Of a DNA stretch of 60,648 bases, positions 2,042 through 19,050 are shown piece by piece. The notes below the pieces were generated by a model that was given only the letters and a program-made list of their open reading frames with translations, was not told the DNA's origin and did no database searches. Made by a program: the position numbers and the translations under genes. The stretch is from Akkermansiaceae bacterium (GTDB lineage: Bacteria > Verrucomicrobiota > Verrucomicrobiia > Verrucomicrobiales > Akkermansiaceae): assembly GCA_021200315.1 (NCBI GenBank), contig JAJQGU010000056.1, forward strand, positions 1 to 60,648, read 5' to 3'. Within the stretch, counting starts at the first letter, position 1, and the number at the start of each line of letters is the position of its first letter.

Positions 2042-2178
2042 AACGGTTGTTTCTTTGCGCTGCCAAAATGCGCAGGCTAATGAATCTTCATTCGAAGAAA
2101 TCAGCCAGAGCGGCCTATCATGCACTTAAAATCTACATTGAATACTTGCACTCAAAGGCCATTAGGATCAGCAGATAA
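2038..2178 (+). CDS. Possible 46-residue basic peptide at the island edge
   Basis: An ATG at 2038 overlaps the lipoprotein stop codon as ATGA and opens a 46-codon frame ending at TAA 2176-2178. The product is basic, with about ten Lys/Arg and several His and Tyr (for example SARAAYHALKIYIEYLHS). It could be a real coupled small gene, a remnant of a truncated gene at the junction, or chance. No family is recognised. Confidence 0.2.
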   Translation: MKRLFLCAAKMRRLMNLHSKKSARAAYHALKIYIEYLHSKAIRISR

Positions 2179-4027
2179 AAATCTGCTCCCGAAACGAGCT
2201 AATCCAGGAACAGATCGAGATGCGTGCGTAGTTGACTTCAACGCATCTGTGAGTTATGCCCATACAAAACCAATTAGCTGCACATATAAGGGGAATCCGG
2301 TTTCTGGAACTGCTTGGAACGCCCTGTTTATAAATGTTGTTCGGTTGATATATCAGGACTGCAAAGAGACGTTCCCTGTTGGAAAGAGCCTTTCTGCCAG
2401 CGCTCGCATTGACATTGGCCCTGTTGAGGACATGATTAATCCCAAAGAAATAGCAGATGGGGTTTATTTAGAGTGCAATGTTAGTGCGACTGGTATTGTA
2501 AATAAACTTCAATCCATCATGAACTATTGTGGGCTGGATTACGACTGTCTTGTTATTCAGTACAGAAGAAATGATAAATCTATAGCTTCTCAAAAGACTG
2601 CTACTAAAAAAACAGAAACTGCTGAAGAACAAAAACAATGGGCACCGTCATATTCGGCGCAGATAGAGAAACTGATTTCCACCCATTATAAATACGGATT
2701 TCGTATGGGCTCCCCCATTGAGCTGATAAGATTTCGGAATTATGCGGAGGCTGCAGATCTGAATCTTCCAACATCTGATGAGGAATTGGAAAAAGAAATT
2801 AGTGCTGCCGGTACTGTGATTGATGGAAAGGTATTTGTTTTAGCTTCAAGCACCGTGGATTACTTGAAAAAGCAGCTTGCTGAGATTTTTGAATCCGGTT
2901 ACAGTGTGATTTTTCTTAAAGCATTTTATGACAAAAATATCGACTTTATGGGAGAAAACCATATTGCATCGCCAGACATGCTGAAGGATATCTTGAAGAG
3001 AATCTGCCCGGATAACTATTACGGTCAGAACATCGTCACTGCAGGTGAAAAGAAAACAGAAGTGGCAGCTATCATGGACGATATCTATCGCCTATGTGAA
3101 GGTGACAGTATAATTGTGTGCTCCGATATTGTTAAACAGTTGGTGTATGTTCCGGAAGGGAAAATCCTGCGGACACTGTCGTGCTGTGATGAGGTGGTCC
3201 GCATTGGAAAAGGAAAATATTTCAACCTCGATCATTTCATTGTCAACGAAAGCGATGCGGCTGCCATCAAGGAATATGTGAAATCTGAGTGCGATCGAAA
3301 TGGATATGCGTCTATTTCGGACATTCCCATGGGAAACATTCCAGAGGAAAACTACGAACTGAATCAACCGGCTCTTTATTCGGCAATCTATACGTTGCTC
3401 CTGAAGAACGAATATGGCCTGAATGGAAAAATTCTCACCAGAGAAAATGCGCAGATAGATATCGTTTCCCTGTTGAAGGCATTTTGTCAAGATTTGTCTG
3501 AATGCACAGTTGCGGAAGTGACCGAAAGGATGAAGGAACTGACAGGAACGACAAACAAGCAGTATTCCATGGTGGCGCTTTTCGATACGATGATTCGTGT
3601 AGACGATGAACATTTCATCTCCGAAGACCAGATCGAATTTGATGTTGAAACAATTGACAATTTACTCAGCGAATATGTTGGTGAGAGATTTTCACCCATT
3701 AGAAGTATCCCTACGTTTATACTGTTTCCATTGTGCGGAGCTAATTGGAATTACTATCTGTTGGAAAGTTATTGCTACCGCTTCAGCCGAAAGTATCATC
3801 TTTCCGTCATAAATTACAACGATAAAAACGCAGGCATAATCGTGTCAAGAAGTTTGACAATGAATTACAATGATATGCTCAGTGAGGCGGCTGCCAATGC
3901 CGACATTGAGTTGACTGAAGAAGCCGTGGGAAAATATTTCTTCGACCTCGGATATACGGCGCGACGCAAATACGCAAGTCTGCCCGACATAATTGCCAAG
4001 GCAATCACCATTAGAGAGGAGAGCTAA
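2120..4027 (+). CDS. Unrecognised 635-residue protein leading the BREX-4 locus
   Basis: First gene of the operon, ending 5 nt before brxP. The first 45 codons are doubtful: there is no Shine-Dalgarno sequence and a perfect hairpin lies in them, and the conserved-looking part begins near residue 44 (SYAHTKPISCTYKG). An in-frame GTG at 2249 is an alternative start. Residues about 44-150 form a compact alpha/beta region (WNALFINVVRLIYQD, YLECNVSATGIVNKLQSIM) similar to a module I have seen at the ends of Firmicutes restriction and defence proteins. The rest alternates helical, winged-helix-like segments without obvious catalytic motifs and no membrane segments. Context suggests a DNA-binding, accessory or regulatory subunit of the defence system. 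I cannot name a family. Confidence 0.6.
   Translation: MHLKSTLNTCTQRPLGSADKNLLPKRANPGTDRDACVVDFNASVSYAHTKPISCTYKGNPVSGTAWNALFINVVRLIYQDCKETFPVGKSLSASARIDIGPVEDMINPKEIADGVYLECNVSATGIVNKLQSIMNYCGLDYDCLVIQYRRNDKSIASQKTATKKTETAEEQKQWAPSYSAQIEKLISTHYKYGFRMGSPIELIRFRNYAEAADLNLPTSDEELEKEISAAGTVIDGKVFVLASSTVDYLKKQLAEIFESGYSVIFLKAFYDKNIDFMGENHIASPDMLKDILKRICPDNYYGQNIVTAGEKKTEVAAIMDDIYRLCEGDSIIVCSDIVKQLVYVPEGKILRTLSCCDEVVRIGKGKYFNLDHFIVNESDAAAIKEYVKSECDRNGYASISDIPMGNIPEENYELNQPALYSAIYTLLLKNEYGLNGKILTRENAQIDIVSLLKAFCQDLSECTVAEVTERMKELTGTTNKQYSMVALFDTMIRVDDEHFISEDQIEFDVETIDNLLSEYVGERFSPIRSIPTFILFPLCGANWNYYLLESYCYRFSRKYHLSVINYNDKNAGIIVSRSLTMNYNDMLSEAAANADIELTEEAVGKYFFDLGYTARRKYASLPDIIAKAITIREES
2170..2187. 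repeat. Perfect short inverted repeat near the left island edge
   Basis: AGCAGAT and ATCTGCT form a perfect 7-bp stem around an AAAA loop. It lies in front of, or within the doubtful N-terminal extension of, the 635-codon gene. It could be an operator for the lost WYL regulator or a leader hairpin. Its placement favours this stretch being non-coding. Confidence 0.4.
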
Positions 4028-4032
4028 TTCCC

Positions 4033-6369
4033 TTGTACTCATATACATATGATCCGATTTCAGGTGGGATTAAACTGAACTCCACACCAACCAATTTTTC
4101 CAAGGAGCCCCGGCCTGTCTATGCACAGGAAATGGACTTGCTTGGTTTTGACCAATATTGGGGTTATGAGAAGCAGAACGATATTCCGTACATGTGGGCA
4201 GAGTCTAATGTCTACTGGTACCATGGGGTTCAGATTGCTAAAACAAAGGGTGGCGACCTATATAACGCGCCGGAGCTTTTGCCAATTAGGACGGAAGATG
4301 GACTGATTCGATTTTCCAAATTAGACGGCGAGATGCTGAATCCGATTGATATTGAAGCAATGTGTATTCAGAACACAGAGCTGATGACAATCATCGAGGA
4401 TACAACGGTCAAAAAAATTGTTCGGGAATACGAAAAATTCAAGAAAAAGCTGGACATATTTCATGTGGCATATTCGGGCGGAAAGGACAGCGCGGTTCTT
4501 CTTGACCTGGTAAAAAAGGCACTTCCTGTCGGAAGCTTTGTAGTGATATTCGGGGATACAGGTATGGAGTTCCCGGATACCTATAAAGTGGTCGAACAGA
4601 CGAAAAAACAATGTGAAGAAGATGGTACGCCATTTTATGTCTCCAGATCGCATTTTGAGCCGGATGAATCATGGCATTTATTTGGCCCACCTGCACGGGT
4701 TCTGCGCTGGTGCTGCAGTGTCCACAAGAGCACACCACAGACGCTGAAAATGCGTGAGATCACCGGGAAAGACAATTATGTCGGCATGGATTTTGTGGGC
4801 GTACGTGCACATGAGAGTGTCACAAGAAGCAAGTACGAATACGAGAATTTTGGAAAGAAGCAAAAAGGTCAATATAGCTTTAATCCCATATTGGAATGGA
4901 CTTCGGCTGAAATATGGCTGTATATGTACATGAATGGTGTACTCATAAACGAGGCCTATAAAAAAGGCAATTCTCGAGCTGGATGCCTTTTTTGCCCAAT
5001 GGGTGGAGGTTCTAGTGATTATTTTAGGCACTGCTCCTACATTCAGGAAGTAGATCAATATGTTAATTGGATCGCAGATTCGTATAACTCAAAGGATAAA
5101 GAGAAACGAATCTCTTATGTTACAAACGGTGGTTGGAATGCCAGAAAAAACGGGAGAGATTTAGCTGATAATCCATTCAGATGCATTGAATCGACACGCG
5201 GCGACTGCATTACCATTTCGGTAGTTTCCCCATCTTCTGATTGGAGAGAATGGATTAAAACTATTGGAGATATTTTAGAAACGCCGCATGGGTATACTAT
5301 CATGTTTGATGAACGCAGTTATGAATTTACTGTTTCAGAAAACGCCAAAGGTTATTTGGTTTCACTTCCTGCACGTTATGCCAAGGAGTCCCCCAAATTT
5401 GTGAAACTTTTTCGCCAAGTGTTTCGCAAAGCGAGCTATTGTAGTGCATGTCGCGTGTGCGAGACTAACTGCAGAAATGGATGTATTAAATTTAATAATG
5501 AAAAAGTCCATATAGAAAACTGCATTCATTGCCACCAATGTCATATGATAGATAGTGGGTGCCTCTTGTTTCATTCGTTACGGCATCCGCAAGGAGGAGG
5601 AAAGTCTATGAAAAGCTTAAATTCATTTGCTGATCATGCCCCTAAACGCGATTGGCTTGTTTCATTTTTTAATTTAAAAGAAGATTTCTTCACTGAACAT
5701 TCGCTGGGGCCTATGATGTACGATATGTTCCGACGCTTTTTGCGTGATGCTGGTCTTAATGAAAAAAATCACTTTACGCCCTTTGCTGAACTTATTTCTG
5801 AAATTGGCTGGGAGACAGATACTGCGTTGGGTCTCATGATTGTTAACTTGGCCATGGATAATCCTCAGATTGCATGGTATGTTAATAATTTTGATATCGA
5901 TATTTATTACGAGAGAAAACAAGTCGAAGACATGCTTGTTGCTCTTGATGTAAAGCCAAAGGACGCAAAATCTATTGTCAAAGCATATAAGAGAATTGTT
6001 GACACTCCATTCGGAAACAATTTGAACTTTGGGTATGTGTCTGATGACGATGATTTGGTTAGATTAAAGTGCTCTATTAGCGACAATAGAGTAGTTCTCT
6101 ATGCACTCTACAAATTTGCAGAGAAATGTAATTTGGATTCGGAATTTACCGTTTCGTACCTTCTCGATGATTCTATAGAACGAGACGGTGTCAGCCCAAT
6201 TCGCCTTTTTGGTTTATACGACGAGGAGGAGCTGCGTTCTATTTTGTTAGGTCTTTCCTCACAGTACCCGGAATTTATCAACGCAACATATACCAATGAT
6301 CTTCAGACAATTACGCTGAGAGAAAAAACATCCGCCGATGTCTTAAAACTCTTTGAGGAGGAAATATGA
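4033..6369 (+). CDS. brxP: BrxP: PAPS-reductase-like PP-loop enzyme with cysteine clusters and DUF4007-like tail
   Basis: A 778-residue protein with a TTG start, preceded by GAGGAG. The PP-loop SGGKDS at residues 148-153 binds ATP in the PAPS reductase/ATP pyrophosphatase superfamily, which includes the sulfur-activating DndC and SspD proteins of DNA phosphorothioation. A CLFC pair lies near residue 319. Two ferredoxin-like cysteine groups follow: C470, C473, C476, C480, C484 and C497, C500, C503, C510, likely binding one or two Fe-S clusters. Residues about 520-778 form a helical domain resembling DUF4007, which is associated with phosphorothioation loci. It stops just before brxC, whose ribosome site lies inside its last codons. 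In BREX type 4 this gene takes the place of the methyltransferase PglX, so it is the likely DNA-modifying component; the chemistry is inferred. Confidence 0.85.
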   Translation: MYSYTYDPISGGIKLNSTPTNFSKEPRPVYAQEMDLLGFDQYWGYEKQNDIPYMWAESNVYWYHGVQIAKTKGGDLYNAPELLPIRTEDGLIRFSKLDGEMLNPIDIEAMCIQNTELMTIIEDTTVKKIVREYEKFKKKLDIFHVAYSGGKDSAVLLDLVKKALPVGSFVVIFGDTGMEFPDTYKVVEQTKKQCEEDGTPFYVSRSHFEPDESWHLFGPPARVLRWCCSVHKSTPQTLKMREITGKDNYVGMDFVGVRAHESVTRSKYEYENFGKKQKGQYSFNPILEWTSAEIWLYMYMNGVLINEAYKKGNSRAGCLFCPMGGGSSDYFRHCSYIQEVDQYVNWIADSYNSKDKEKRISYVTNGGWNARKNGRDLADNPFRCIESTRGDCITISVVSPSSDWREWIKTIGDILETPHGYTIMFDERSYEFTVSENAKGYLVSLPARYAKESPKFVKLFRQVFRKASYCSACRVCETNCRNGCIKFNNEKVHIENCIHCHQCHMIDSGCLLFHSLRHPQGGGKSMKSLNSFADHAPKRDWLVSFFNLKEDFFTEHSLGPMMYDMFRRFLRDAGLNEKNHFTPFAELISEIGWETDTALGLMIVNLAMDNPQIAWYVNNFDIDIYYERKQVEDMLVALDVKPKDAKSIVKAYKRIVDTPFGNNLNFGYVSDDDDLVRLKCSISDNRVVLYALYKFAEKCNLDSEFTVSYLLDDSIERDGVSPIRLFGLYDEEELRSILLGLSSQYPEFINATYTNDLQTITLREKTSADVLKLFEEEI

Positions 6370-6370
6370 T

Positions 6371-9300
6371 ATGAGTAGCAATAACGAAAAAAAATATTGT
6401 GAATATTTCAATGTTAATGAGGTTTATTTCCCTTGTATTGATGAGTCAGCAATCAATGCAGGCGTGGACTGGAGTGCGACCTATCCGCATGAGACTTTTA
6501 TCGAGCTGTTAAACAGTACAGAAAAAATGCTTGGTGGCACGACCAATCGCTCCCTGTGGATTCATGGCGCATATGGAACCGGTAAGTCTCAGTGTGCATA
6601 TGCACTGAAGAAACTATTGGATGTTTCTGCGGAAGAATTTGAGGCATACTGGGATAAGTATGCTTCCTTGAAAAAATATTCCGGTTTAAAGAAGAAACTC
6701 CTCGGGCATAAAGAACACGGTGTTATGACCGCCTATCGCTATGCTTCCGGCAGTATCACCACTCCGCAGCAGCTCTTTTTTGCTGTACAAGAAAGCATTA
6801 AAGCCTCTTTGGATCAGATTCCGGATTCCTATAAGGGTGAGAACACTCTGAAGGAAAGTGTAATTGCATGGCTAGAAGATCCCGCGCATAACAGCTTCGT
6901 GAATACGCTGCTTCTGAAGCCTCAGTGGATGGCACAGTTTTCTCAGTCTACCGCTGACGAGATTATCAACACGCTGAAAAAGCGTTCTGATGTATCCGGC
7001 CTTATGGACAGCATTTTTAAGCTCGCTGCGGAAGAGGGTATTACTGCCCTTTCTTTGACGGCGGATTCTCTTTGCAAATGGATTAAGGATGTTGTAACCA
7101 ATAACAAGACAAAAATCGTCCTGATCTGGGACGAATTCAGTGACTTTTTCAGACAGAACAGAAATTCATTGGATGAGTTCCAGAAGATTGTTTCGCTGTG
7201 CGAGGAAACACACTTCTATTTTGTGATTGTGACGCACCCAATCTCTTCTATCGCAGGTGCCTCCGTGTCCAGTGATGGCCCTATGAGCGTAGTGCAGCAA
7301 CGATTCAACAAGGTGGGAATTACGCTGCCTCCTAACATTGCTTTTGAACTTGCCGGGCATGCTTTCTCCGTGATTCATGCAGCGAAAGACGCTTGGGACA
7401 GTATGACCGGGGATCTGAGTGCGCGAGTGCCGGATTCCAGAAATGCGGTTATGAAGGCTACCGATGTAAAGGACGAGCGGATCATGCAGCATATGCTGCC
7501 GATCCAGCCCATGGCTGCATTGGTGCTGAAGAACATTGCCTCCGCTTTCCAGTCAAACCAGCGGAGTATGTTCGATTTTATTAAAACGCCGAAGGACTTG
7601 GATGTTCAGGATTTCCAGTGGTTTATTCAGAACACCAGCCCGGTTTCGGATAGAGCTTTTCTAACCATTGATATGCTCTGGGATTTCTTTTACGACAAGG
7701 GAAAAGACTATCTGTCCTCTGACATCAAGTTAATCCTCGATACTTTCCCGCAGCAGACAAACCTACAGGAAAAGGAGAAAATTGTACTTAAAACAATTTT
7801 GATTATGCAATCCGTTGACCAGAGACTAGGCGGATCTGTTCCCCTTTTAAAGCCTACGGATCAGAACCTAAGCTACGCTTTTGAAGGTGACGCCCAGGAG
7901 TACGAGAACGAATGCAAGAGCATCGCCAAGGCTCTTGTGACGAAAGGCGTGCTGATTCAGACTCCTGTTGCTGATGGTAAAAAGGCATACTCCGTGGCGA
8001 TCCTTGCCGGCGATGGGGCCAAGATTGATCGGCTTAAAGAAGAAGTTCGAAAAAGAGGAAACATCGACAAGCTTATTGCTGAGGGACAGCAATTGCCGAC
8101 TGCATTGGGCCTCACGCCGCCTCTTCGCCTCCGTTATGCCCGGAGTATGGATACCGGTGCGTTGCCGGTTGTGACAATAACAAATTTTGTCAAATCGATG
8201 GATGCACTCAAGGCCAAGGATTTGAACTGGCATTTTTACGCAGTGCTTGCACTGGCAAAGACAGAGGAAGAAGCACAAGCTTTCCGTAATCTTATCAAAA
8301 AAAACATGGGCAATGCGGCATATCGAAATATCACCGTGATCGATGCGCTTTCTTCGCCTCTTGGCTTAGAAGAATTTGAAAAATATGTTGATTACTCTGC
8401 TATGTCTATATACTACAACGGCAATAATAAGTCGCAGTCTGAGGATAATGCAAGGAAGGCCAAAGAGGTTCTTGATCGCACATGGAAGGATCGCATTCAC
8501 GACGGTCAGTTCATCGTCTGGACGTATGATAACCAAGGTGGAGAAAAAGCCACCGGGGCTGCTTCTGTGCACACAATTCTGCAGACGATTGTTTTAAAGT
8601 GCTTCAAATATACATTCGACTTTACGAAGGGATTGACCGAAACCCAGCTGAAGTTGACCCAGCCCAAGCCTGTTGCGAAATACGGCATGGATGTTCTGGA
8701 AATCAAGGGATTAATCGCCGGATGTGAAAAGTCAGTTCTTGGCAAAGTTTGGAAGCGGGAAAACTATTGGAAAGACAGCGAATTAGCGTCAGATCCGGTT
8801 TCTATCATCAAGAAGTCAATCGATACCATGATTGAGCAGTCTTTTAAGGCTGGCGGGCGTGTTTCTATTGATGAAATTTACGATTTTCTGGAAAGTACAT
8901 ACGGCTTTGCACCTTGCAATGTAACTGCATTTGTCGTTGGCTTCCTGCTGAAAGAATATAAGACAGATCCATATCGTTTCCAGGATTCTGCAGGCGCCAG
9001 CGAATCCATGACTCCGGACAAGCTTTCTGAAATGATTGGAAACTATATGAACGGAAAGTCAAAAACGACATACATTGTCAGTCTGACACCGGAAGAAAAA
9101 GCCTTCTATGAAATTACAGAAACTGCTTGGGGTGTTGCTCAGAATTCCTGCGCTTCGCCTGCACAGGCGGGATCCCTGATTCAGGCAAGGATGCGCGAGA
9201 TTGTGTATCCTGTATGGACGTTAGAAGAAGTCGATAATACAGGAGTATATGATATTGTCAAAAAATACATAAAACTCGTTCAGAGTGAAGCTAAGGTTGC

Positions 9301-10537
9301 GCATGGCATCGCAAGCGAGATTGGCAGCATTGCTATGCAACGTAAAACCAGTGCGGAAAATCTGAAGAACTTGATCACTGCAGATAATTGTCAGCAGGGT
9401 ATGAAACTTTTCCTGGAACACTTTGATGGTGGAAGATTGCTCACACTCGCGCAGGAAATCAATGCGTCTGGCAATGTGCTCAGCGATATTAAGAAGCTAT
9501 TTAGCGTAAAGCATTCTGCACAGTGGATTGCATCTACCGGAGAAGATGAAATCCGGAAACTGACCACAGAATATGAGTTTGTAAAAAATACGAACCTGAT
9601 GCTCAATGTATCGACAAGCTCAAAAGAAAATGCATTTAAGGAGTGGAGAGAATTTCTGAAGTTCATCGGATTCTCTTGTGAAGCCGTCCAGACAACATAT
9701 CCTGCTCTCAAGAAATTCTTCGGATATCTTCTTATGATTGTCAACTATGAAGACATTTTGCCGGATATCATGAAGCAACTTCTTGACGAAATGACAGAGC
9801 ATACCACGGAAATCAGAGATATCTTGGCAGATACAGTTTCGGTATTTTCAACTATTTATAGTCCTTATTTAAAGGGATTCAACACAGTTGAAATCGAAGA
9901 TATCAAAAATTCCATCAAGGATGATATGTTTGTGCTGTCTGCGACAAAGAGCAATGCAACAGTGAAAAAAGCCGCTGAAGATTCACGAAAGAATCAGATC
10001 AAGGCGCAGTTGTTTGAGCTTTGGAGCACAAAGACAGGAGGTACAAAGAATCCACATCAATGGTCTAAAAAACACAGGACACCGATTCTCTGCTGTATTG
10101 ATGAGGATACTTATGCAACCGCCAAGAAGGTATTTGCTACGCTAAACAGCACGGTGCAAACCGAAGCTGAAATTCGGTATGCACTGGAATTCTTGGAAAA
10201 TGCTACCTTCTTCGAGAAAATCGAGAGCGATGAGTTCCGGAACAAGCGCTTTATGGAACGCATTGTTGGATATTACGCAAGATTGCTTCCTGATATCAAC
10301 CCCATTCGGACTGCGCTGGAAAATTTAGCAGTGGACGTATATGATTGGACGGATGATCCAACTGTTCGCAAAAAAATCGAATCCATGGCCAGAGCGGAAT
10401 ACAACGCAGGCGGAAGCGATAATGCCATCAGTACCATCGATTCTATGAAGGAAAATGAATTGAGAGATTGGCTCAAAATGCTGGTTTCTAAAGATATGGA
10501 ATTAGGAGTTAAAATTATCAATAACGGAGGGAGATAA
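6371..10537 (+). CDS. brxC: BrxC/PglY-type large P-loop ATPase of the BREX-4 system
   Basis: A 1,388-residue protein. I choose the ATG at 6371 (MSSNNEKKYCEYF) because GAGGAG at 6355-6360 lies 10 nt upstream; an in-frame ATG six codons earlier lies inside brxP. A Walker A motif (GAYGTGKS) is at residues 66-73 and a Walker B-like IVLIWDEFSDFF near residue 250. The long C-terminal part is mostly helical, with no membrane segment. Size, early P-loop and position between brxP and pglZ fit the BrxC/PglY ATPase, a core BREX component needed for modification and phage exclusion. Translation is probably coupled to brxP because only one base separates the stop from this start. Confidence 0.85.
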   Translation: MSSNNEKKYCEYFNVNEVYFPCIDESAINAGVDWSATYPHETFIELLNSTEKMLGGTTNRSLWIHGAYGTGKSQCAYALKKLLDVSAEEFEAYWDKYASLKKYSGLKKKLLGHKEHGVMTAYRYASGSITTPQQLFFAVQESIKASLDQIPDSYKGENTLKESVIAWLEDPAHNSFVNTLLLKPQWMAQFSQSTADEIINTLKKRSDVSGLMDSIFKLAAEEGITALSLTADSLCKWIKDVVTNNKTKIVLIWDEFSDFFRQNRNSLDEFQKIVSLCEETHFYFVIVTHPISSIAGASVSSDGPMSVVQQRFNKVGITLPPNIAFELAGHAFSVIHAAKDAWDSMTGDLSARVPDSRNAVMKATDVKDERIMQHMLPIQPMAALVLKNIASAFQSNQRSMFDFIKTPKDLDVQDFQWFIQNTSPVSDRAFLTIDMLWDFFYDKGKDYLSSDIKLILDTFPQQTNLQEKEKIVLKTILIMQSVDQRLGGSVPLLKPTDQNLSYAFEGDAQEYENECKSIAKALVTKGVLIQTPVADGKKAYSVAILAGDGAKIDRLKEEVRKRGNIDKLIAEGQQLPTALGLTPPLRLRYARSMDTGALPVVTITNFVKSMDALKAKDLNWHFYAVLALAKTEEEAQAFRNLIKKNMGNAAYRNITVIDALSSPLGLEEFEKYVDYSAMSIYYNGNNKSQSEDNARKAKEVLDRTWKDRIHDGQFIVWTYDNQGGEKATGAASVHTILQTIVLKCFKYTFDFTKGLTETQLKLTQPKPVAKYGMDVLEIKGLIAGCEKSVLGKVWKRENYWKDSELASDPVSIIKKSIDTMIEQSFKAGGRVSIDEIYDFLESTYGFAPCNVTAFVVGFLLKEYKTDPYRFQDSAGASESMTPDKLSEMIGNYMNGKSKTTYIVSLTPEEKAFYEITETAWGVAQNSCASPAQAGSLIQARMREIVYPVWTLEEVDNTGVYDIVKKYIKLVQSEAKVAHGIASEIGSIAMQRKTSAENLKNLITADNCQQGMKLFLEHFDGGRLLTLAQEINASGNVLSDIKKLFSVKHSAQWIASTGEDEIRKLTTEYEFVKNTNLMLNVSTSSKENAFKEWREFLKFIGFSCEAVQTTYPALKKFFGYLLMIVNYEDILPDIMKQLLDEMTEHTTEIRDILADTVSVFSTIYSPYLKGFNTVEIEDIKNSIKDDMFVLSATKSNATVKKAAEDSRKNQIKAQLFELWSTKTGGTKNPHQWSKKHRTPILCCIDEDTYATAKKVFATLNSTVQTEAEIRYALEFLENATFFEKIESDEFRNKRFMERIVGYYARLLPDINPIRTALENLAVDVYDWTDDPTVRKKIESMARAEYNAGGSDNAISTIDSMKENELRDWLKMLVSKDMELGVKIINNGGR

Positions 10538-10542
10538 AGGCC

Positions 10543-12807
10543 ATGTTATGTAATGAAGTCGAAAAATACATAGCGAGTGCACAGGGAACCCCCTTTTTCT
10601 ATGCTGTCGGTGATGATGATTATGCGGAGATTCTCTCGGAATTAAAGCAGAGAGGCATTGTGGTTGATCGAGTCAGTGATTTCTGCCCTAGGGATGATAA
10701 ATATCCGGATTTAGTCGATATTATTGACCATTTCAGAACCTTGGATATTGATTGCAACACAAATAAACATGTCTTAATTGGGCTTGGAGAATACTTGGCA
10801 CTGAGAGGATCTGTTTTTGCGGAGCAGACTTTGAGGCAGTTGAAAAACACTACACTTGGAACTGCGCGCGTTATTTTACTGTTAAGGTCGGTTAGGTCTC
10901 AAGTAGATAGCATGGTCAACGATGACATCAGATTGTCTGCGCAAAAAAGAGTGCACATTACTCCAAATGCTTTTTCAATGGTCTCCATCTCCAGAATGAA
11001 ATATTCGCTCAAAGACGATGTCGCAAACGGCGTAAAGGGATTGTTGCGTCGGTTGGAAGACGGTGCAGCTGGAATTTGCAGTGTAAATACGAACATGGAG
11101 TTTCGAGATTCCATTTATCCCGTTTCAAGTATCAATACCGCTTATGAAGCGCTTGTTAATACGCTGAAGGATTTTGATATTGCGGAGAAATATGGAACTG
11201 AGGATCAGTGGAATAGGCTTTTTCAAGAGCTTTCTAAAAAGAAAAGCCTTGACACTGTATATACCGAGAACAACATAACCAATGATATAGAGGATAAGCT
11301 CTATCTGAAATGTGCTGGATTAGAATTTCGCAATTGGCTTTACTTCATTTTCCTTAAGCAGTACATCGACAAGATAGAGAATGAATACCTGAAGTATGTT
11401 GTTGAAATGACAGAGCAATTTGACTTGCTTAAGAACAACATTCTTAATTTAATCATTGGTGTGGATAGGTCAGATCCCAGGTATGAACAATTTTACTGGG
11501 ACAGGAAGAAGCTAATTAGTGGATTTCCTGAGTCTGACCTTGCTATTTTTGTTCATGCGAATGAGGTAGATCCAGAGGAAAGCATTTACCGCTTTACAGA
11601 CACAACTGATCTGGAATGCTCCGAAATTATAAAGTGGATCTCCAAGCATGGCTACATCGAAGAGATTAATACAATATATCCTGCACTGAGACAGTATCTG
11701 GCCGATTATGTTTTCGATTGTGGAGACCTTTCTGAATTGCTTACGCAGTATTTTAAGCAATATCGAATGAGGAAGATTAAAAATTATATCGATGACGAGT
11801 TTCTTGAGCAAGTCATATCAAACGCTAAAGATTTGCCGTATACCAGACTAGAAACACGCGACAGTGCGATCTTGAATATAACTGAAAAACAATCGTCCTT
11901 TCTGTACTGGATCGATGCACTAGGGGTGGAATTTTTACCCTATATAACAGCTCTCGTGGAGAAAAAAGGATTAGCAATGCATGTAGATATTACATATGCA
12001 GAACTACCGACCATTACATCCATTAATAAGTCATTCTATGAGAACTGGCCTGGTTCAAAGTTTAAAGAGGAAAAACTGGATGATATCAAGCACAAGGCTA
12101 AGGGTGGGTATAGCTTTGAAAAATGTGATGCTCCTATCCATTTAGTGTCTGAGCTAAAAGTGATTGAATGTGCTGTCGATAGGGCTGCTACCAAACTGGC
12201 AATGCATACATGTAAGACCTTTGTGATTGCAAGTGACCATGGCGCATCCCGACTTGCGGTAATTCAGCGCCAAGAAGAAAAGTATGAAACTGATACAAAA
12301 GGCGAACACTCCGGCCGTTGCTGCAAAGAATTTGATGGCTGTGACCTGCCCTATGCAATCTTAGAAAATGGATATTTAGTGCTGGCAGATTACGGACGAT
12401 TCAAGGGCAGTAGAGCCGCCAATGTTGAAGTGCATGGAGGGGCATCGCTGGAAGAAGTGATTGTGCCTGTCATTACGCTTAAACTCAAAAAGCAATCTAA
12501 TATTGTTGATATTAAGGTTATTAAGCCTGACTCAATTTATGCTGACCGTCATAATGGAACGTCAATTAATCTCTACATTTCGGATATAAAGACCTCTGAG
12601 AACGTGAGTATTGTCATTGGAGATAAGCGTTACAAGGCGGTTTGCAAAGATGCAACACATTTCGCCGTTGATATGCCGGACATTAAACGCGCTAAAAAAG
12701 ATATATCCGCCAATGTATTTGATGGTGACGATTTAGTTGGAAACGTAAGATTCAACGTAAAGGGTAAAATGGCTGCTGTAGTCAGTGACTTCGATGATCT
12801 GATTTAA
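10543..12807 (+). CDS. pglZ: PglZ-domain protein of the BREX-4 system (alkaline phosphatase superfamily)
   Basis: A 754-residue protein with GGAGG 11 nt before the ATG and 5 nt after brxC. The C-terminal third carries the PglZ fold: YWIDALGVE near residue 456 (metal-binding Asp), ASDHGASR near 563 (Asp and His ligands), and EVHGGASLEEVIVPVI near 630, the usual end of PglZ domains. The N-terminal 450 residues are a mainly helical region typical of BREX PglZ proteins. PglZ is the one gene shared by all BREX types; its exact reaction is not settled, and phosphatase-type hydrolysis is inferred from the fold. All visible metal-ligand motifs are intact. Confidence 0.85.
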   Translation: MLCNEVEKYIASAQGTPFFYAVGDDDYAEILSELKQRGIVVDRVSDFCPRDDKYPDLVDIIDHFRTLDIDCNTNKHVLIGLGEYLALRGSVFAEQTLRQLKNTTLGTARVILLLRSVRSQVDSMVNDDIRLSAQKRVHITPNAFSMVSISRMKYSLKDDVANGVKGLLRRLEDGAAGICSVNTNMEFRDSIYPVSSINTAYEALVNTLKDFDIAEKYGTEDQWNRLFQELSKKKSLDTVYTENNITNDIEDKLYLKCAGLEFRNWLYFIFLKQYIDKIENEYLKYVVEMTEQFDLLKNNILNLIIGVDRSDPRYEQFYWDRKKLISGFPESDLAIFVHANEVDPEESIYRFTDTTDLECSEIIKWISKHGYIEEINTIYPALRQYLADYVFDCGDLSELLTQYFKQYRMRKIKNYIDDEFLEQVISNAKDLPYTRLETRDSAILNITEKQSSFLYWIDALGVEFLPYITALVEKKGLAMHVDITYAELPTITSINKSFYENWPGSKFKEEKLDDIKHKAKGGYSFEKCDAPIHLVSELKVIECAVDRAATKLAMHTCKTFVIASDHGASRLAVIQRQEEKYETDTKGEHSGRCCKEFDGCDLPYAILENGYLVLADYGRFKGSRAANVEVHGGASLEEVIVPVITLKLKKQSNIVDIKVIKPDSIYADRHNGTSINLYISDIKTSENVSIVIGDKRYKAVCKDATHFAVDMPDIKRAKKDISANVFDGDDLVGNVRFNVKGKMAAVVSDFDDLI

Positions 12808-12819
12808 GGAGGCACGTTG

Positions 12820-14313
12820 ATGAATTGTGATGATAAACTCAGAGACTGTTTCGATGAAATGGTCGTCTATAAAGATTTAAAAAAGACAAATTTTTTTTCC
12901 ACACTGAGTCTGCCGGCTTTTATGCGTGACTGGCTTCTAAAGAAATTTGAAGACGATGAAGGAAATTTTGACCGGGATGATTTAACCCGTTTTGTAAAAA
13001 AGTATATTCCCAGAAAAGATGATTGGATTTCAATAAAGAACCGAGTCATTGTTGAGGGTGAGCGTGTAAAATTCTTAGCTAAGGTTTCTGTCAATATTGA
13101 CATTAAGACCGGAGAGGTATCTTTTGCACTGCCAGATTATGGCCTTGGATACAAGGAAACCATTATTGAAAGTGATGTATGGGATGCTTGCAAAGAAGAC
13201 TTAGTTCATGGCGGAGATATTTGGGGAATGATCGAACTAGGTTATCGCTCTCCGGAAGAGTTTGACATCGAATTTGAATATGAATCCAAGCGCTCCAGAG
13301 GCAAGACATCACAGGATGGAAAAATAAAATTGGTGTCTTTTAAAAATTTCTGCCCTTATCAGATTGACCTGGATCAGTATAAGGATGCCAGAAGCGAGTT
13401 TACTATCGAGGAATGGCTTGATGCCATTCTTGGTGCTGTTGACTATAACGCTAAAGGATATAAGTCGGAAGAAGAAAAATTAACTATGATTACTCGACTG
13501 CTTCCTTTTGTTGAAAAACGACTGAATCTGATTGAATTGGCACCGAAAGGCACTGGGAAATCGTATCTATTTGGAAATGTAAGCAGGTACGGATGGCTTT
13601 CCAGCGGCGGAACAATGAGTAGAGCCAAGATGTTCTATGATCAGACTAAACGAAAAGAAGGTCTGATATCTGCATGTGACTACGTTACACTAGACGAGGT
13701 TCAAACTATTTCGTTTACAGATACAGATGAAATGCGGGGCGCACTGAAGGGATACATGGAGAATGGCAAATTCACAGTCGGTGATTACCAGGGTGTGGCC
13801 TATGCAGGCGTAGTTTTGTGCGGAAATATCAGACAGGAAATTATGGATGCGGACGGATACAGTAATATGTTTACGGAGTTGCCGGTAATCTTCCATGAGT
13901 CAGCACTGATTGAAAGATTTCATGGATTCATCAAGGGGTGGCATATCCCGAGAATGAATGATGATTTGAAAATCGATGGGTGGGCGCTGAACTCTGAATA
14001 TTTCTGCTCAATTATGCATGAACTGAGAGATGACATGACCTACCGCAGTATTGTTGACGATCTTGTAATTGTACCCGATGGCGCGGATACAAGAGACACG
14101 GAGGCGGTAAAAAGAATCGCAACAGCATACTTAAAACTCCTATTCCCCCATGTACAAAGTGCTTCCGATATCTCAACCAGAGAATTTAGACGCTATTGCC
14201 TAGATAGGGCCAGAAAAATGAGGGATACAATTAAGTACCAGCTTGGCTTGCTTGATGTAGAATACAGCGGCAAAGACCTTCCAATGTTTGGTATTAGAGA
14301 GTTTGGTGAGTAA
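12820..14313 (+). CDS. brxL: BrxL AAA+ ATPase, short form without an evident Lon protease domain
   Basis: A 497-residue protein. I prefer the ATG at 12820, because AAGGAGG at 12806-12812 lies 7 nt upstream, over the TTG three bases earlier. Walker A is APKGTGKS at residues 241-248, and a Walker B-like VTLDEVQ follows near residue 290. The N-terminal segment (CFDEMVVYKDL, KYIPRKDDW) matches the start of BrxL proteins. Type 1 BrxL proteins are, from memory, about 680 residues and end in a Lon-like domain with a Ser-Lys dyad. Here the sequence stops about 180 residues earlier and no such dyad is visible, so it is probably a DNA-dependent AAA+ motor only. It is the last of the four core BREX-4 genes. 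Confidence 0.8.
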   Translation: MNCDDKLRDCFDEMVVYKDLKKTNFFSTLSLPAFMRDWLLKKFEDDEGNFDRDDLTRFVKKYIPRKDDWISIKNRVIVEGERVKFLAKVSVNIDIKTGEVSFALPDYGLGYKETIIESDVWDACKEDLVHGGDIWGMIELGYRSPEEFDIEFEYESKRSRGKTSQDGKIKLVSFKNFCPYQIDLDQYKDARSEFTIEEWLDAILGAVDYNAKGYKSEEEKLTMITRLLPFVEKRLNLIELAPKGTGKSYLFGNVSRYGWLSSGGTMSRAKMFYDQTKRKEGLISACDYVTLDEVQTISFTDTDEMRGALKGYMENGKFTVGDYQGVAYAGVVLCGNIRQEIMDADGYSNMFTELPVIFHESALIERFHGFIKGWHIPRMNDDLKIDGWALNSEYFCSIMHELRDDMTYRSIVDDLVIVPDGADTRDTEAVKRIATAYLKLLFPHVQSASDISTREFRRYCLDRARKMRDTIKYQLGLLDVEYSGKDLPMFGIREFGE

Positions 14314-14318
14314 TTAAA

Positions 14319-14519
14319 ATGAAAGAATTCAGCTGTTATGTTTGCGGAAAGGCAGCCTTGACGAGAAACGAGGTTGGTCTAACTAAAAAACTGATTAATC
14401 CAAAAGCAGTCAATTTCTATTGTATTGATTGCCTAGCTGAGTACTTGGAAGTAACTACTGAAGAGCTGGAAACCAAAATCGAAGAGTTTAAGGACGAGGG
14501 TTGTACCCTCTTTAAGTGA
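14319..14519 (+). CDS. 66-residue zinc-ribbon-like protein of the BREX-4 locus
   Basis: It lies between brxL (5 nt gap) and the cysteine desulfurase (9 nt gap), in the same operon. Two Cys pairs, CYVCG near residues 6-10 and CIDC near residues 35-38, make a typical four-cysteine zinc ribbon. The C-terminus is an acidic helix (TTEELETKIEEFKDEG) followed by one extra cysteine near residue 62. It has no enzyme motif. It could be a metal-dependent adaptor, a sulfur-carrier partner of the desulfurase or a small DNA-binding regulator; the sequence does not decide among these. Confidence 0.7.
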   Translation: MKEFSCYVCGKAALTRNEVGLTKKLINPKAVNFYCIDCLAEYLEVTTEELETKIEEFKDEGCTLFK

Positions 14520-14528
14520 GGTCGGATT

Positions 14529-15659
14529 GTGAAAGAGTACATCTATGCGGATAATGCCGCGACATCTAAACTGAATATTGAAGCCTTCGAGGCAATGAAG
14601 CCGTTTCTGATGGAGCAGTATGCAAATGCCTCACAGCCGTATTCGTTTGCACACCCCGCAAAAATAGCTCTTAAAAATGCACGAGAAACTGTAGCATGTT
14701 CTATCGGCGCATCGCCAGATGAAATATTTTTTACATCCGGTGGCACTGAAAGCGACAATTGGGCTATTAAGGGAGCGGCTGGCCTTTTCCCGGAGCGAAC
14801 GGAACTAATTACATCGGAGATTGAACACCATGCCGTTTTGCATTCAGTTAATGCGATGACTGCATTCGGTCTGTCTATACAATATTTACCTGTAGATAGA
14901 GAAGGAGTTGTTCATCCGAGCGCTTTAAGAAATTTAATAACAGGTAAAACAAAGCTCGTCTCTGTAATGCTATCCAATAACGAAGTTGGAACAATAGAAC
15001 CGATATCCGAACTCGCGGAGATTGCACATGCACAAGGTGCTCTCTTTCATTCGGATGCTGTGCAGAGTGTTGGGCATATTCCTATTAATGTTAGAGAACT
15101 AGGAGTAGATATGTTGTCTGCTTCTGCGCATAAATTTAATGGTCCTAAAGGAATTGGATTCCTTTATGTGAAAAGCGGGTTAGATATTCCTCCGTTAAAT
15201 GACGGAGGTGCTCAAGAGTTTAGAAAGCGTGCCGGAACTGAAAATATAGCTTCAATTGTCGGAATGGCTACAGCGCTTAAGTGCTGCTGTTCACATCTAA
15301 AAGAAACGGGCAATTATCTTTTAAAGCTGGAGTCTATTCTTCTTTCAATGTTAGACGATGCCAAAGTTGACTATTTGAGAAATGGCGCAAAAACGCATAC
15401 ACCAGGGAATATAAGCCTTTCATTCAAAGATGCACAGGGAGAATTGTTGCTACACAGGCTTGATTTGATTGGTATATGTGTTTCAACCGGGTCGGCCTGT
15501 GACGGTCAAAACACGCAGATATCGCATGTTCTAAAAGCAATGAAAATACCGGAAGAATACGCATTTGGAACAATTCGTGTGTCATTGAGCAAAGATAATA
15601 CCGAAGAAGAAGTAAGAAAAATCGGAAATGCCCTGATTAAGATTCTGAAGTCTAGCTAG
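14529..15659 (+). CDS. Cysteine desulfurase (NifS/IscS/DndA class), likely sulfur donor for the defence locus
   Basis: A 376-residue PLP enzyme that takes sulfur from L-cysteine as a protein persulfide. The start is GTG, with GAGG just upstream. The N-terminal YADNAATSKLN is the usual opening of the family. The PLP lysine is K202 in SASAHKFNG, and the catalytic cysteine is C324 in STGSAC. It is complete. A desulfurase next to a PAPS-reductase-like PP-loop enzyme is the arrangement seen in dnd and ssp phosphorothioation loci, so it most likely feeds sulfur to BrxP rather than serving general Fe-S assembly. An Fe-S maturation role for BrxP's cysteine clusters is an alternative. Confidence 0.85.
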   Translation: MKEYIYADNAATSKLNIEAFEAMKPFLMEQYANASQPYSFAHPAKIALKNARETVACSIGASPDEIFFTSGGTESDNWAIKGAAGLFPERTELITSEIEHHAVLHSVNAMTAFGLSIQYLPVDREGVVHPSALRNLITGKTKLVSVMLSNNEVGTIEPISELAEIAHAQGALFHSDAVQSVGHIPINVRELGVDMLSASAHKFNGPKGIGFLYVKSGLDIPPLNDGGAQEFRKRAGTENIASIVGMATALKCCCSHLKETGNYLLKLESILLSMLDDAKVDYLRNGAKTHTPGNISLSFKDAQGELLLHRLDLIGICVSTGSACDGQNTQISHVLKAMKIPEEYAFGTIRVSLSKDNTEEEVRKIGNALIKILKSS

Positions 15660-15674
15660 CAATAGGGGGCTGCT

Positions 15675-16066
15675 ATGGCCAACAGAAGTAAACTTAGACT
15701 ATTGTATCTGTATCAATACCTTGTTCATAATACAGATGCAGAGCATCCAATGTCCACTATGGAACTCATAAGGATGCTTAAGAATGAATATGACCTCACC
15801 GTAACAAGAAATACAATCAGTGATGATTTAAGCATTTACATGATTGCGGGCTCCATATCGAACACTATGAATCAGCCCAAAATAAATACTATTATGATGG
15901 TCAAGTTTACAGCACAACGGAATTAAAGATTTTAGCAGATGCTGTTGCATCTTCTAAATTTATAACACAGCGAAAAAGTGAGGCCCTTATTGCAAAACTG
16001 CTTGCATTAACAAATACTCAAAATGCAAATATGCTACGTCGCCATTCGAGCAATAAGAATTGTTGA
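15675..16066 (+). pseudogene. Broken WYL-type transcriptional regulator
   Basis: Residues 1-55 encode a winged-helix start (RSKLRLLYLYQYL, STMELIRMLKNEY, TRNTISDDL) preceded by AGGGGG. A frameshift near 15840 then moves the frame. In the other frame the family resumes: HDCGLHIEHYES, YYYDGQVYSTTELKILADAV, SSKFITQRKSEALIAKL, and it stops at 16064-16066. The WYL domain proper and C-terminus are missing. WYL regulators often control BREX and other defence operons, so this was probably the local repressor. Its loss predicts deregulated expression of the upstream operon. Confidence 0.7.
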
Positions 16067-17370: not shown

Positions 17371-19050
17371 ATGAAGAAGAGACGTTGTTATATTTACACC
17401 CGTGTATCTACGGAGATACAGGTTGACGGCTACAGCCTGGACGCGCAAAAACAGAAGTTACACGGCTACGCAGATTATCAGGATATGCAGATTGTCTCGG
17501 AATACTGCGACGCAGGAAAATCCGGGAAGAATGTCGCCGGTCGCCCTGAGTTTCAAGCAATGATGGAACGGATACAAAGTGGTGAGGATCCGGTTGATTT
17601 TGTGCTTGTATTCAAACTGTCACGGTTCGGACGTAATGCGGCTGACGTATTATCAAACCTGCAATTAATGCAGGACTACGGGACAAATCTGATATGCGTT
17701 GAGACAATATCGACAACAGCAAGGATTCCGGAAAACTGATGATCGCGATTCTTTCTGCCGTTGCCGAAATCGAGCGCGAGAACATACTTGTGCAGACGAT
17801 GGCAGGACGGAAACAGAAAGCAAGGGAAGGACGCTGGAACGGCGGACAGGCTCCCTATGGTTATGAGATAGACAAGGAACGCGGCGTTGCTGGTTGTGAA
17901 CCCGGATGAAGCGGACGTTATAAGGCTTATTTTTGATAAGTTCGCGAATGATAGATTAGGTATCAACGGCACGGCTGAATGGCTCAATGATAACGGCTAT
18001 AGAAAGATAATGCGCCAGAACGGCAAATATACTTTATTTTCTATATCATTTATAAAAAATGTTCTGGATAATCCGGTGCATACCGGAAAGATAGCTTACG
18101 GCAGAAGGTCGCATGAAAAGGTTCCGGGAAAGCGTAACGAATACAGGGTATTGAAACAAGATACTTATGATGCGTATGATGGACAGCATGAAGCAATTAT
18201 TTCTGATGAACTGTGGGAAGCGGCACGGGCAAGACGTCAGGAGAGCGGCGAGAAGCATGAGAGAACACACAGTTTAGGGCATGAGCATGTTTTGTCCGGG
18301 ATTCTCCATTGCCCTGTATGCGGTGCGCAAATGTACGGCTCTGTAAACAGAAAGAAAAAGAAAGACGGGACGTACTATAAAGACTGCTTTTATTATGTCT
18401 GCCGCAACCGGAAAGCACAGCGGGGTTCAGTCATGCACATACAGACGGCAACCCCTGCAGGAAGCAATCAACGCGGAAGTAATGGCTGTAATCGGTGACG
18501 CGTTCGGCGGGCGGATTTTTCGGAAATCATGCAGGAAGTGCTGAACGAGACGACAGATGAAGCTGTATTGAAACAACGGCTGGAAGGTCTGCAGCAATCC
18601 CGCGAAAAATACGTCTATGCAAAAGACCGGCTGTTCGGATAGATTGACCGGCTGGATTACACGGATCCAATGTATGATGTCAAGGTAGAGGACATGGAAC
18701 GGCGGCTCGATAATCTGTACGCAGATATTGCACAGGTAGATAGCGAGATTGAGAAAGTCAACCGTGATTTGAAGGATTCAAAAGACGCGAAAGCCACAAT
18801 AGAAGATGCGTATTATGTTCTTCAATGCGCCTCAACTGATATGCAGACATGGGACGATGCCGCCAAAAAAGAAATAGTCAATGCGTTTATCGAAAGGGTA
18901 GATATCTTTCCAGAGATGACAAACGGGCGGTGGGTAAAATCAATAGATTTCCAGTTCCCTGTTGTAACATCTGACGGGGAAGACGGCTCGACATCTATTC
19001 CGCGCAAAGAAGCACACGTTGAAACGATTCGCGTTCAGAGAATCAATCGA
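17371..19050 (+). pseudogene. Large serine recombinase, inactivated by frameshifts and a nonsense codon
   Basis: The N-terminal resolvase domain is intact (CYIYTRVSTEIQVDGYSLD with the catalytic serine, then FKLSRFGRNAADVL). A one-base loss near 17703 breaks the next block (DNIDNSKDSGKLMIAILSAVAEIERE). An extra T near 17885 breaks before VLVVNPDEADVIRLIFDKF. The zinc-ribbon part HCPVCGAQMYGS is followed by another shift near 18430, one more near 18515 and an in-frame TAG near 18640. The coiled-coil tail (DMERRLDNLYADI) is readable to about 19050, where backbone sequence starts. This was very likely the integrase of the island; it cannot be made as one protein now. Confidence 0.85.

What the first reader, a model, noticed from the sequence alone, without database searches (positions are those of the whole stretch)
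2120..15659. BREX type 4 locus with a cysteine desulfurase: sulfur-based phage defence
Seen: seven genes in one direction with short gaps, comprising an unrecognised 635-residue protein, PP-loop/PAPS-reductase-like BrxP, BrxC, PglZ, BrxL, a zinc-ribbon protein and a NifS-type desulfurase. Known: the brxP-brxC-pglZ-brxL set defines BREX type 4, and desulfurase plus PAPS-reductase-like protein is the sulfur-activating pair of dnd and ssp phosphorothioation. Inference: the locus marks self DNA by phosphorothioation or another sulfur modification. dndB, dndD and dndE homologues are absent, as are an SspB-like nickase and a PglX methylase.
Basis: partly seen in the sequence, partly recalled or inferred. 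Interest (0 to 1): 0.78.

Follow-up and report, generated by a model that had tools for sequence, protein, structure and literature searches.

The report
BREX-4 operon with DNA-reading first gene
A foreign stretch of this bacterial chromosome carries a complete, already described kind of anti-virus system that is reported to mark DNA with sulfur (BREX type 4), and its first gene, which none of the libraries searched recognises, turns out to be a constant partner built from interchangeable DNA-binding parts, so it may be the piece that decides where the marks go.

Summary
The seven genes are there as described. BREX-4 phosphorothioation, and the desulfurase plus small zinc protein in BREX-4 loci, are already in the literature, so the headline is known. 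One stated absence is doubtful: BrxP's C-terminus is DUF4007-like, which the literature equates with SspB.

What I did not find described is the 635-residue first gene. No Pfam, NCBIfam, PADLOC or PHROG family matches it, yet a homologue lies directly upstream of brxP in 23 of 23 testable related loci. Its C-terminal core (about 460 residues, tandem winged helices) is co-inherited with the operon. Its N-terminus is a mosaic: here a SeqA-like DNA-binding domain (structure Z 8.6; profile E 2e-7), elsewhere integrase SAM-like or Cro-type heads, which change as often as shuffled labels on the BrxP tree. The core is absent from distant BREX-4 loci, including a second, four-gene BREX-4 in the same genome.

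Best reading: a seven-gene BREX-4 subtype whose first gene is a DNA-recognition subunit with swappable heads. DNA binding is likely; setting the modification site is inferred and untested.

The parts
2120..4027 (+). first gene of the operon, 635 aa: SeqA-like domain plus tandem winged-helix core; candidate DNA-recognition subunit
   Evidence: ORF; no family hit; homologue directly upstream of brxP in 23/23 testable loci; AF2 model pLDDT 84.9
2222..2581 (+). SeqA-like DNA-binding module (residues 35-154 of the first gene)
   Evidence: VIA-align Z 8.6, rmsd 2.4 over 93 residues to E. coli SeqA 1lrr; hhalign of the extended family against SeqA E 2e-7, score 46.6 versus at most 14.1 in 20 column shuffles; intermediate L105 hits Pfam SeqA at 5.6e-5
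2648..4021 (+). conserved core of the first gene, tandem winged helices (residues 177-634)
   Evidence: core profile 1e-186 in the window; structure elements; Foldseek matches to winged-helix arrays of SelB and UFL1
4033..6369 (+). brxP: PAPS-reductase/PP-loop domain, Cys-rich Fe-S-type motif, DUF4007-like C-terminus
   Evidence: PADLOC 3e-248, Pfam PAPS_reduct 1.7e-31; SGGKDS 148-153, Cys227/228/318/321 and eight ferredoxin-type Cys conserved in all homologues that cover them; DUF4007-like
6353..10537 (+). brxC ATPase (the listed TTG start may be too early; homology begins near residue 13)
   Evidence: PADLOC E 0, 1516 bits; Walker A GAYGTGKSQ 72-80 and WDEF 259-262 conserved
10543..12807 (+). 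pglZ, type 4
   Evidence: NCBIfam NF033445 498.8 bits against a cut-off of 140; D458, D565, H566, H631 in 26/26
12817..14313 (+). brxL, N-terminal and AAA+ ATPase parts only (498 aa)
   Evidence: TIGR02688 404.2 bits against 329.3; Pfam BrxL_N and BrxL_ATPase
14319..14519 (+). small protein with two CxxC pairs (66 aa, probable zinc ribbon)
   Evidence: ORF; Cys6/9/35/38/62 in 21/21 homologues; no Pfam hit
14529..15659 (+). cysteine desulfurase, DndA/SspA-like
   Evidence: PADLOC 4e-122 and 9e-121; H100, D176, Q179, K202 and Cys324 in 19/19
15675..16060 (+). remnant of a WYL-type regulator gene, frameshifted and cut short (right end approximate)
   Evidence: frame 0 then frame +2; similar N-terminus in L012 2282-3163, which has a WYL domain 2.2e-10
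17371..19000 (+). remnant of a serine recombinase gene, broken by frameshifts (right end approximate)
   Evidence: Pfam Resolvase 1.7e-24 on 17371-17739; continuation in other frames

Best explanation
This is a horizontally acquired, intact BREX type 4 operon of a seven-gene subtype. The desulfurase draws sulfur from cysteine as an enzyme-bound persulfide. BrxP, with ATP and its conserved cysteines, places it on the DNA backbone as a phosphorothioate, helped by the BrxC ATPase and PglZ; BrxL and PglZ act against unmarked invading DNA. Published for the BREX-4 family: phosphorothioation and anti-phage action. Inferred here: the division of labour. The first gene encodes a multi-domain DNA-binding protein: a tandem winged-helix core that stays with the operon, plus exchangeable N-terminal heads, in this copy a SeqA-like one. 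I propose it is the DNA-recognition subunit that brings BrxP/BrxC to particular sites, taking the role the PglX methylase's recognition domain plays in BREX-1. Shown: conservation, fold, module exchange, co-inheritance. Inferred: DNA binding and site choice.
For: Six genes hit BREX-4/desulfurase profiles or conserved homologues, with catalytic residues intact. Homologue of the first gene upstream of brxP in 23/23 testable loci; in 391 Clostridia genomes all six strong core hits lie next to brxP. Core distances correlate with PglZ (r 0.89) and BrxC (0.85), about as well as those genes with BrxP (0.80). N-terminal heads are SeqA-like, integrase SAM-like (Pfam 9.9e-12; XerA Z 6.0) or Cro/C1 HTH (4e-18). 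Their distribution on the BrxP tree equals shuffled labels (SeqA-like 6 changes versus 6.3; whole architectures 19 versus 19.1). No PglX methylase is in the island. SeqA's DNA-contact residue Asn150 (PMC6225831) is matched by Asn in all seven BREX modules and Arg118 by Arg in six of seven.
Against: No DNA binding or sulfur chemistry was measured. Three homologues have almost no N-terminal head (L017, L018, L027), so a head is not essential. BREX-4 operons of other clades lack the gene altogether (L081, L082, and G000 contig C4), so BREX-4 can work without it. BrxP already carries a DUF4007-like DNA-binding region. SeqA-like and Cro-type heads would also suit a regulator. The module exchange rests on 25 rows and on profile thresholds.
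Confidence: 0.5

Rival explanations
1. The first gene is an autoregulator of the operon (BrxR-like role): it binds the operon's own promoter, and its heads vary with promoter sequence.
For: It is the first gene; the Cro/C1 head in L021 is typical of repressors; winged helices are common in regulators.
Against: A separate regulator is present: a WYL-type gene remnant lies behind the operon here, with a similar gene behind the L029 operon and upstream in L012. The protein is large (469-975 aa) with a core of about 460 residues conserved with the operon, and SeqA-like and integrase-like heads are unusual for a local repressor.
Confidence: 0.2
2. The first gene is the reader of the restriction arm: it detects marked or half-marked DNA (SeqA reads half-methylated DNA) and licenses or blocks PglZ and BrxL, rather than choosing the sites.
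For: The SeqA fold reads half-methylated GATC; the same module occurs in GmrSD-type modification-dependent nucleases (L108, L109).
Against: Such a reader should keep one head per modification chemistry, whereas heads differ between sister operons.
Confidence: 0.25
3. The desulfurase serves to build the Fe-S clusters of BrxP rather than to donate sulfur to DNA; housekeeping desulfurases supply the mark.
For: BrxP has two four-cysteine ferredoxin-type motifs conserved in all homologues that cover them. L018 and L021 lack the gene. The same genome has other desulfurase-like genes and a second BREX-4 without an adjacent one.
Against: Best profile matches are DndA and SspA, the sulfur donors of the phosphorothioation systems, though these enzymes may also do both jobs.
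Confidence: 0.35
4. The island is decaying in this host: regulator and recombinase are broken and the first gene has lost an N-terminal head and perhaps its promoter, so the system may be silent.
For: Frameshifts in the WYL and recombinase genes; nearest relative L004 has an extra head; the ORF begins about 80 bases after a host-like gene ends.
Against: All seven operon genes are open with intact active-site residues over 13.5 kb.
Confidence: 0.2

Closest known systems
BREX type 4 (brxPCZL), as in PMC11931770 and PMC12839542
   Same: BrxP, BrxC, type-4 PglZ, BrxL; desulfurase and small zinc protein as reported in PMC12839542
   Different: adds a constant first gene, a winged-helix array with exchangeable DNA-binding heads, which that paper's main text does not list; BrxP only about 27% identical to the four-gene type in the same genome
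Ssp system (SspABCD)
   Same: desulfurase, PAPS-reductase-like protein and ATPase with weak profile similarity to SspA, SspD and SspC; DUF4007-like BrxP C-terminus, equated with SspB in PMC12839542
   Different: PglZ and BrxL present; SspE/SspFGH not among the seven genes
Dnd system (DndABCDE)
   Same: DndA-like desulfurase, weak DndC similarity in BrxP
   Different: no DndB, DndD or DndE; BrxP and the desulfurase fail the curated DndC and DndA cut-offs
E. coli SeqA, C-terminal domain
   Same: fold and collinear profile match of the first gene's residues 35-154; counterparts of Asn150 and Arg118
   Different: no Pfam SeqA hit for the window protein itself; sits in front of a winged-helix array; no evidence for GATC or methyl recognition
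HsdS / target-recognition domains of restriction-modification systems
   Same: logic of a DNA-recognition subunit with exchangeable domains (analogy only)
   Different: no sequence or fold relation shown

Membership tests
BREX type 4 | BrxP (PAPS-reductase domain) in place of PglX | tested here: met
   PADLOC BrxP 3e-248, Pfam PAPS_reduct 1.7e-31; no methylase-type hit among the operon proteins
BREX type 4 | BrxC ATPase | tested here: met
   PADLOC E 0, 1516 bits; Walker A and B conserved
BREX type 4 | type-4 PglZ | tested here: met
   NF033445 498.8 bits, cut-off 140
BREX type 4 | BrxL | tested here: met
   TIGR02688 404.2 bits, cut-off 329.3
BREX type 4 | DUF4007 region (fused to BrxP or separate) | tested here: inconclusive
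   Window BrxP 534-773 aligns to PDLC02511 at 1e-10; Pfam DUF4007 found in 3 of 27 homologous C-termini, best 1.4e-4, not in the window's own
BREX type 4 | phosphorothioate in DNA and anti-phage activity | not testable with these tools
   needs LC-MS/MS, PT-seq and phage assays
Dnd | DndA and DndC at curated cut-offs | tested here: not met
   DndA 300.9 of 480 bits; DndC 31.4 of 290.4 bits
Dnd | DndB, DndD, DndE in the operon | tested here: not met
   no such hit among the operon proteins scanned
Ssp | SspB, SspC, SspD as best matches | tested here: not met
   SspC and SspD hits are far weaker than BrxC and BrxP
SeqA (first-gene head) | hit to the SeqA profile | tested here: not met
   no Pfam SeqA hit for the window protein; intermediate L105 hits at 5.6e-5, just below the cut-off
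SeqA (first-gene head) | SeqA C-terminal fold | tested here: met
   Z 8.6, rmsd 2.4, 93 of 118 residues on a predicted model; hhalign E 2e-7 for the extended family, E 0.011 for the seven BREX modules alone

The most novel reading that the evidence does not exclude
In a widespread seven-gene subtype of BREX-4, the site of sulfur marking is set by a dedicated first-gene subunit whose N-terminal heads (SeqA-like, integrase-like, Cro-like) are exchanged between operons, so phosphorothioate motifs diversify by head swapping, and the SeqA-like head reads newly replicated half-marked DNA to keep the pattern.
Probability: 0.25. Interest if true: 0.85.

Novelty: new variant of a known kind. Interest (0 to 1): 0.55.

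Why it matters
BREX-4 lacks the methylase that carries site recognition in BREX-1, so what decides where the sulfur mark goes is open. A constant subunit with exchangeable DNA-binding heads gives a concrete, swappable candidate, splits BREX-4 into two comparable subtypes (both in this one genome), and would make phosphorothioate specificity testable and perhaps programmable. It also places a SeqA-like domain in defence proteins.

Tried and rejected
Viral-contig search and tblastn against plasmids with the 635-aa protein gave nothing; the one hit in the phage collection (MT835511) is a contig holding a whole BREX-4 operon next to a PpdK-like ORF and is probably bacterial. PDB profile searches with the whole protein, with the SeqA-like module alone, and with the BrxP C-terminus found nothing useful, so the SeqA link rests on the fold match and on the extended profile. 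The domain alignment without intermediates was weak (score 20.4, against at most 16.1 in shuffles). The retroviral matrix match of the SAM-like module (Z 7.2) was taken as a common helical arrangement. The most N-terminal 'WDKYEA' module got no fold match; that shows nothing about its novelty. A mixed head alignment (A5) put different modules on top of each other and was not used. Weak core matches in other Clostridia proteins with sigma-70 region 4 domains were kept apart as a wider winged-helix group. I considered that the first gene is a chance neighbour: rejected by 23/23 synteny and the distance correlations. The left edge of the island could not be placed because the left flank is not conserved in the genus. 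The whole genome was not available as a file.
Full report
Observation. The stretch is 40-46% G+C inside a chromosome of 60-66%, and genus-conserved sequence resumes at about 19072. Curated profiles identify BrxP, BrxC, PglZ of type 4, BrxL and a DndA/SspA-like desulfurase far beyond chance. Active-site residues are intact across homologues: SGGKDS and Cys227/228/318/321 in BrxP plus eight ferredoxin-type cysteines, Walker motifs in BrxC and BrxL, the metal-ligand-type residues of PglZ, and Lys202 and Cys324 of the desulfurase.

What is known already. PMC11931770 states that brxPCZL (BREX type 4) synthesises phosphorothioates and has antiviral activity. [quoted passage not shown] So the headline of the finding is published.

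The first gene. The 635-aa protein has no match in Pfam, NCBIfam, PADLOC or PHROGs. A scan of 84,980 species genomes with BrxP returned 25 loci; in 23, all where the upstream flank is held, a homologue lies immediately before brxP; the other two are cut by contig ends. Hosts named in the titles include Clostridia, Negativicutes, Synergistota, Spirochaetales, Anaeroplasma and Prevotellaceae. In 391 Clostridia genomes, six had strong core hits (E below 1e-80), all beside brxP. Nine had near-full BrxP matches: the same six, two divergent BrxPs (27% and 30% identical to this one) without the gene, and one at a contig end. The same genome as the window has a second BREX-4 locus of that other type, brxP-brxC-pglZ-brxL alone, on contig C4. 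The core was not found in 36 other species of the genus. So the gene marks one clade of BREX-4, and this copy was acquired from outside.

Anatomy of the first gene. The predicted structure is confident (mean pLDDT 84.9). Residues 177-634 form a row of winged helices; Foldseek's best matches are the winged-helix arrays of UFL1 and SelB, low in TM-score, as expected for a flexible array. Residues 55-148 match the C-terminal DNA-binding domain of E. coli SeqA (Z 8.6, rmsd 2.4, 93 residues; next unrelated match 6.7). Sequence supports this. A profile of the domain finds other proteins, one of which (L105) hits Pfam SeqA at 5.6e-5, and others are GmrSD-type nucleases with DUF4268. A profile including those intermediates aligns collinearly to the SeqA family with E 2e-7 and score 46.6, against at most 14.1 in 20 column shuffles; without them the score is 20.4 against at most 16.1. 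The SeqA residue Asn150, which contacts GATC (PMC6225831), is matched by Asn in all seven BREX modules, and Arg118 by Arg in six of seven.

Mosaic N-termini. Across 25 homologues the core is constant while the part before it runs from 5 to over 500 residues and combines a helical 'WDKYEA' module, SAM-like modules of the integrase type (Pfam 9.9e-12 in L029; XerA Z 6.0 for the L015 model), the SeqA-like module, or a Cro/C1 helix-turn-helix. On a BrxP tree the SeqA-like module changes 6 times (shuffled mean 6.3) and whole architectures 19 times (shuffled mean 19.1): no tree signal is detectable. Well-supported sister pairs differ. The core, in contrast, tracks PglZ (r 0.89) and BrxC (r 0.85). 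Limits: 25 rows, labels set by profile thresholds, and three homologues with almost no head.

Mechanism. Shown: gene content, intact catalytic residues, synteny, fold, module exchange. Published for BREX-4: phosphorothioation and phage defence. Inferred: the desulfurase supplies sulfur to BrxP (or builds its Fe-S clusters); BrxP with BrxC and PglZ marks the DNA; BrxL and PglZ act on unmarked DNA; the first-gene protein brings the complex to its sites through exchangeable heads, as target-recognition domains do in restriction-modification systems. Alternatives are an operon regulator (a separate WYL-type regulator exists in related operons and as a broken remnant here) and a reader of half-marked DNA in the restriction arm, for which the SeqA fold is suggestive.

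Verdict. The preprint on BREX-4 phosphorothioation was not held, so earlier mention there cannot be excluded.

Noticed in passing
G000 contig C4, 218-10092 (L118 218-10092): Second BREX-4 locus in the same genome: four genes only (brxP 841 aa, brxC, pglZ, brxL), 39-42% G+C, without the first gene, small zinc protein or an adjacent desulfurase.
   Followed up: partly
window 15675-16060 and 17371-19000: Frameshifted remnants of a WYL-type regulator and of a serine recombinase behind the operon; the element looks immobilised.
   Followed up: partly
L108, L109, L111 (Clostridia); L105: The SeqA-like domain also sits between GmrSD and DUF4268 in modification-dependent nuclease-like proteins, a stretch without a Pfam family there.
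   Followed up: partly
L087 5945-9949: A 1334-aa protein with RNA polymerase alpha-CTD, sigma-70 region 4 and a distant relative of the winged-helix core lies a few kilobases upstream of apparent dndB, dndC and dndD genes.
   Followed up: no
L029 (MT835511.1 in the phage collection): A record labelled 'Bacteriophage sp.' carries a full BREX-4 operon next to a pyruvate phosphate dikinase-like gene; probably a mislabelled bacterial contig.
   Followed up: partly
L010, L015, L024, L092: brxC is split into two open frames in these BREX-4 loci: sequencing error, decay or true split genes.
   Followed up: no
L018, L021, L017: Two loci with the first gene lack the desulfurase, and a third has it after a gap of about 0.8 kb.
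   Followed up: no
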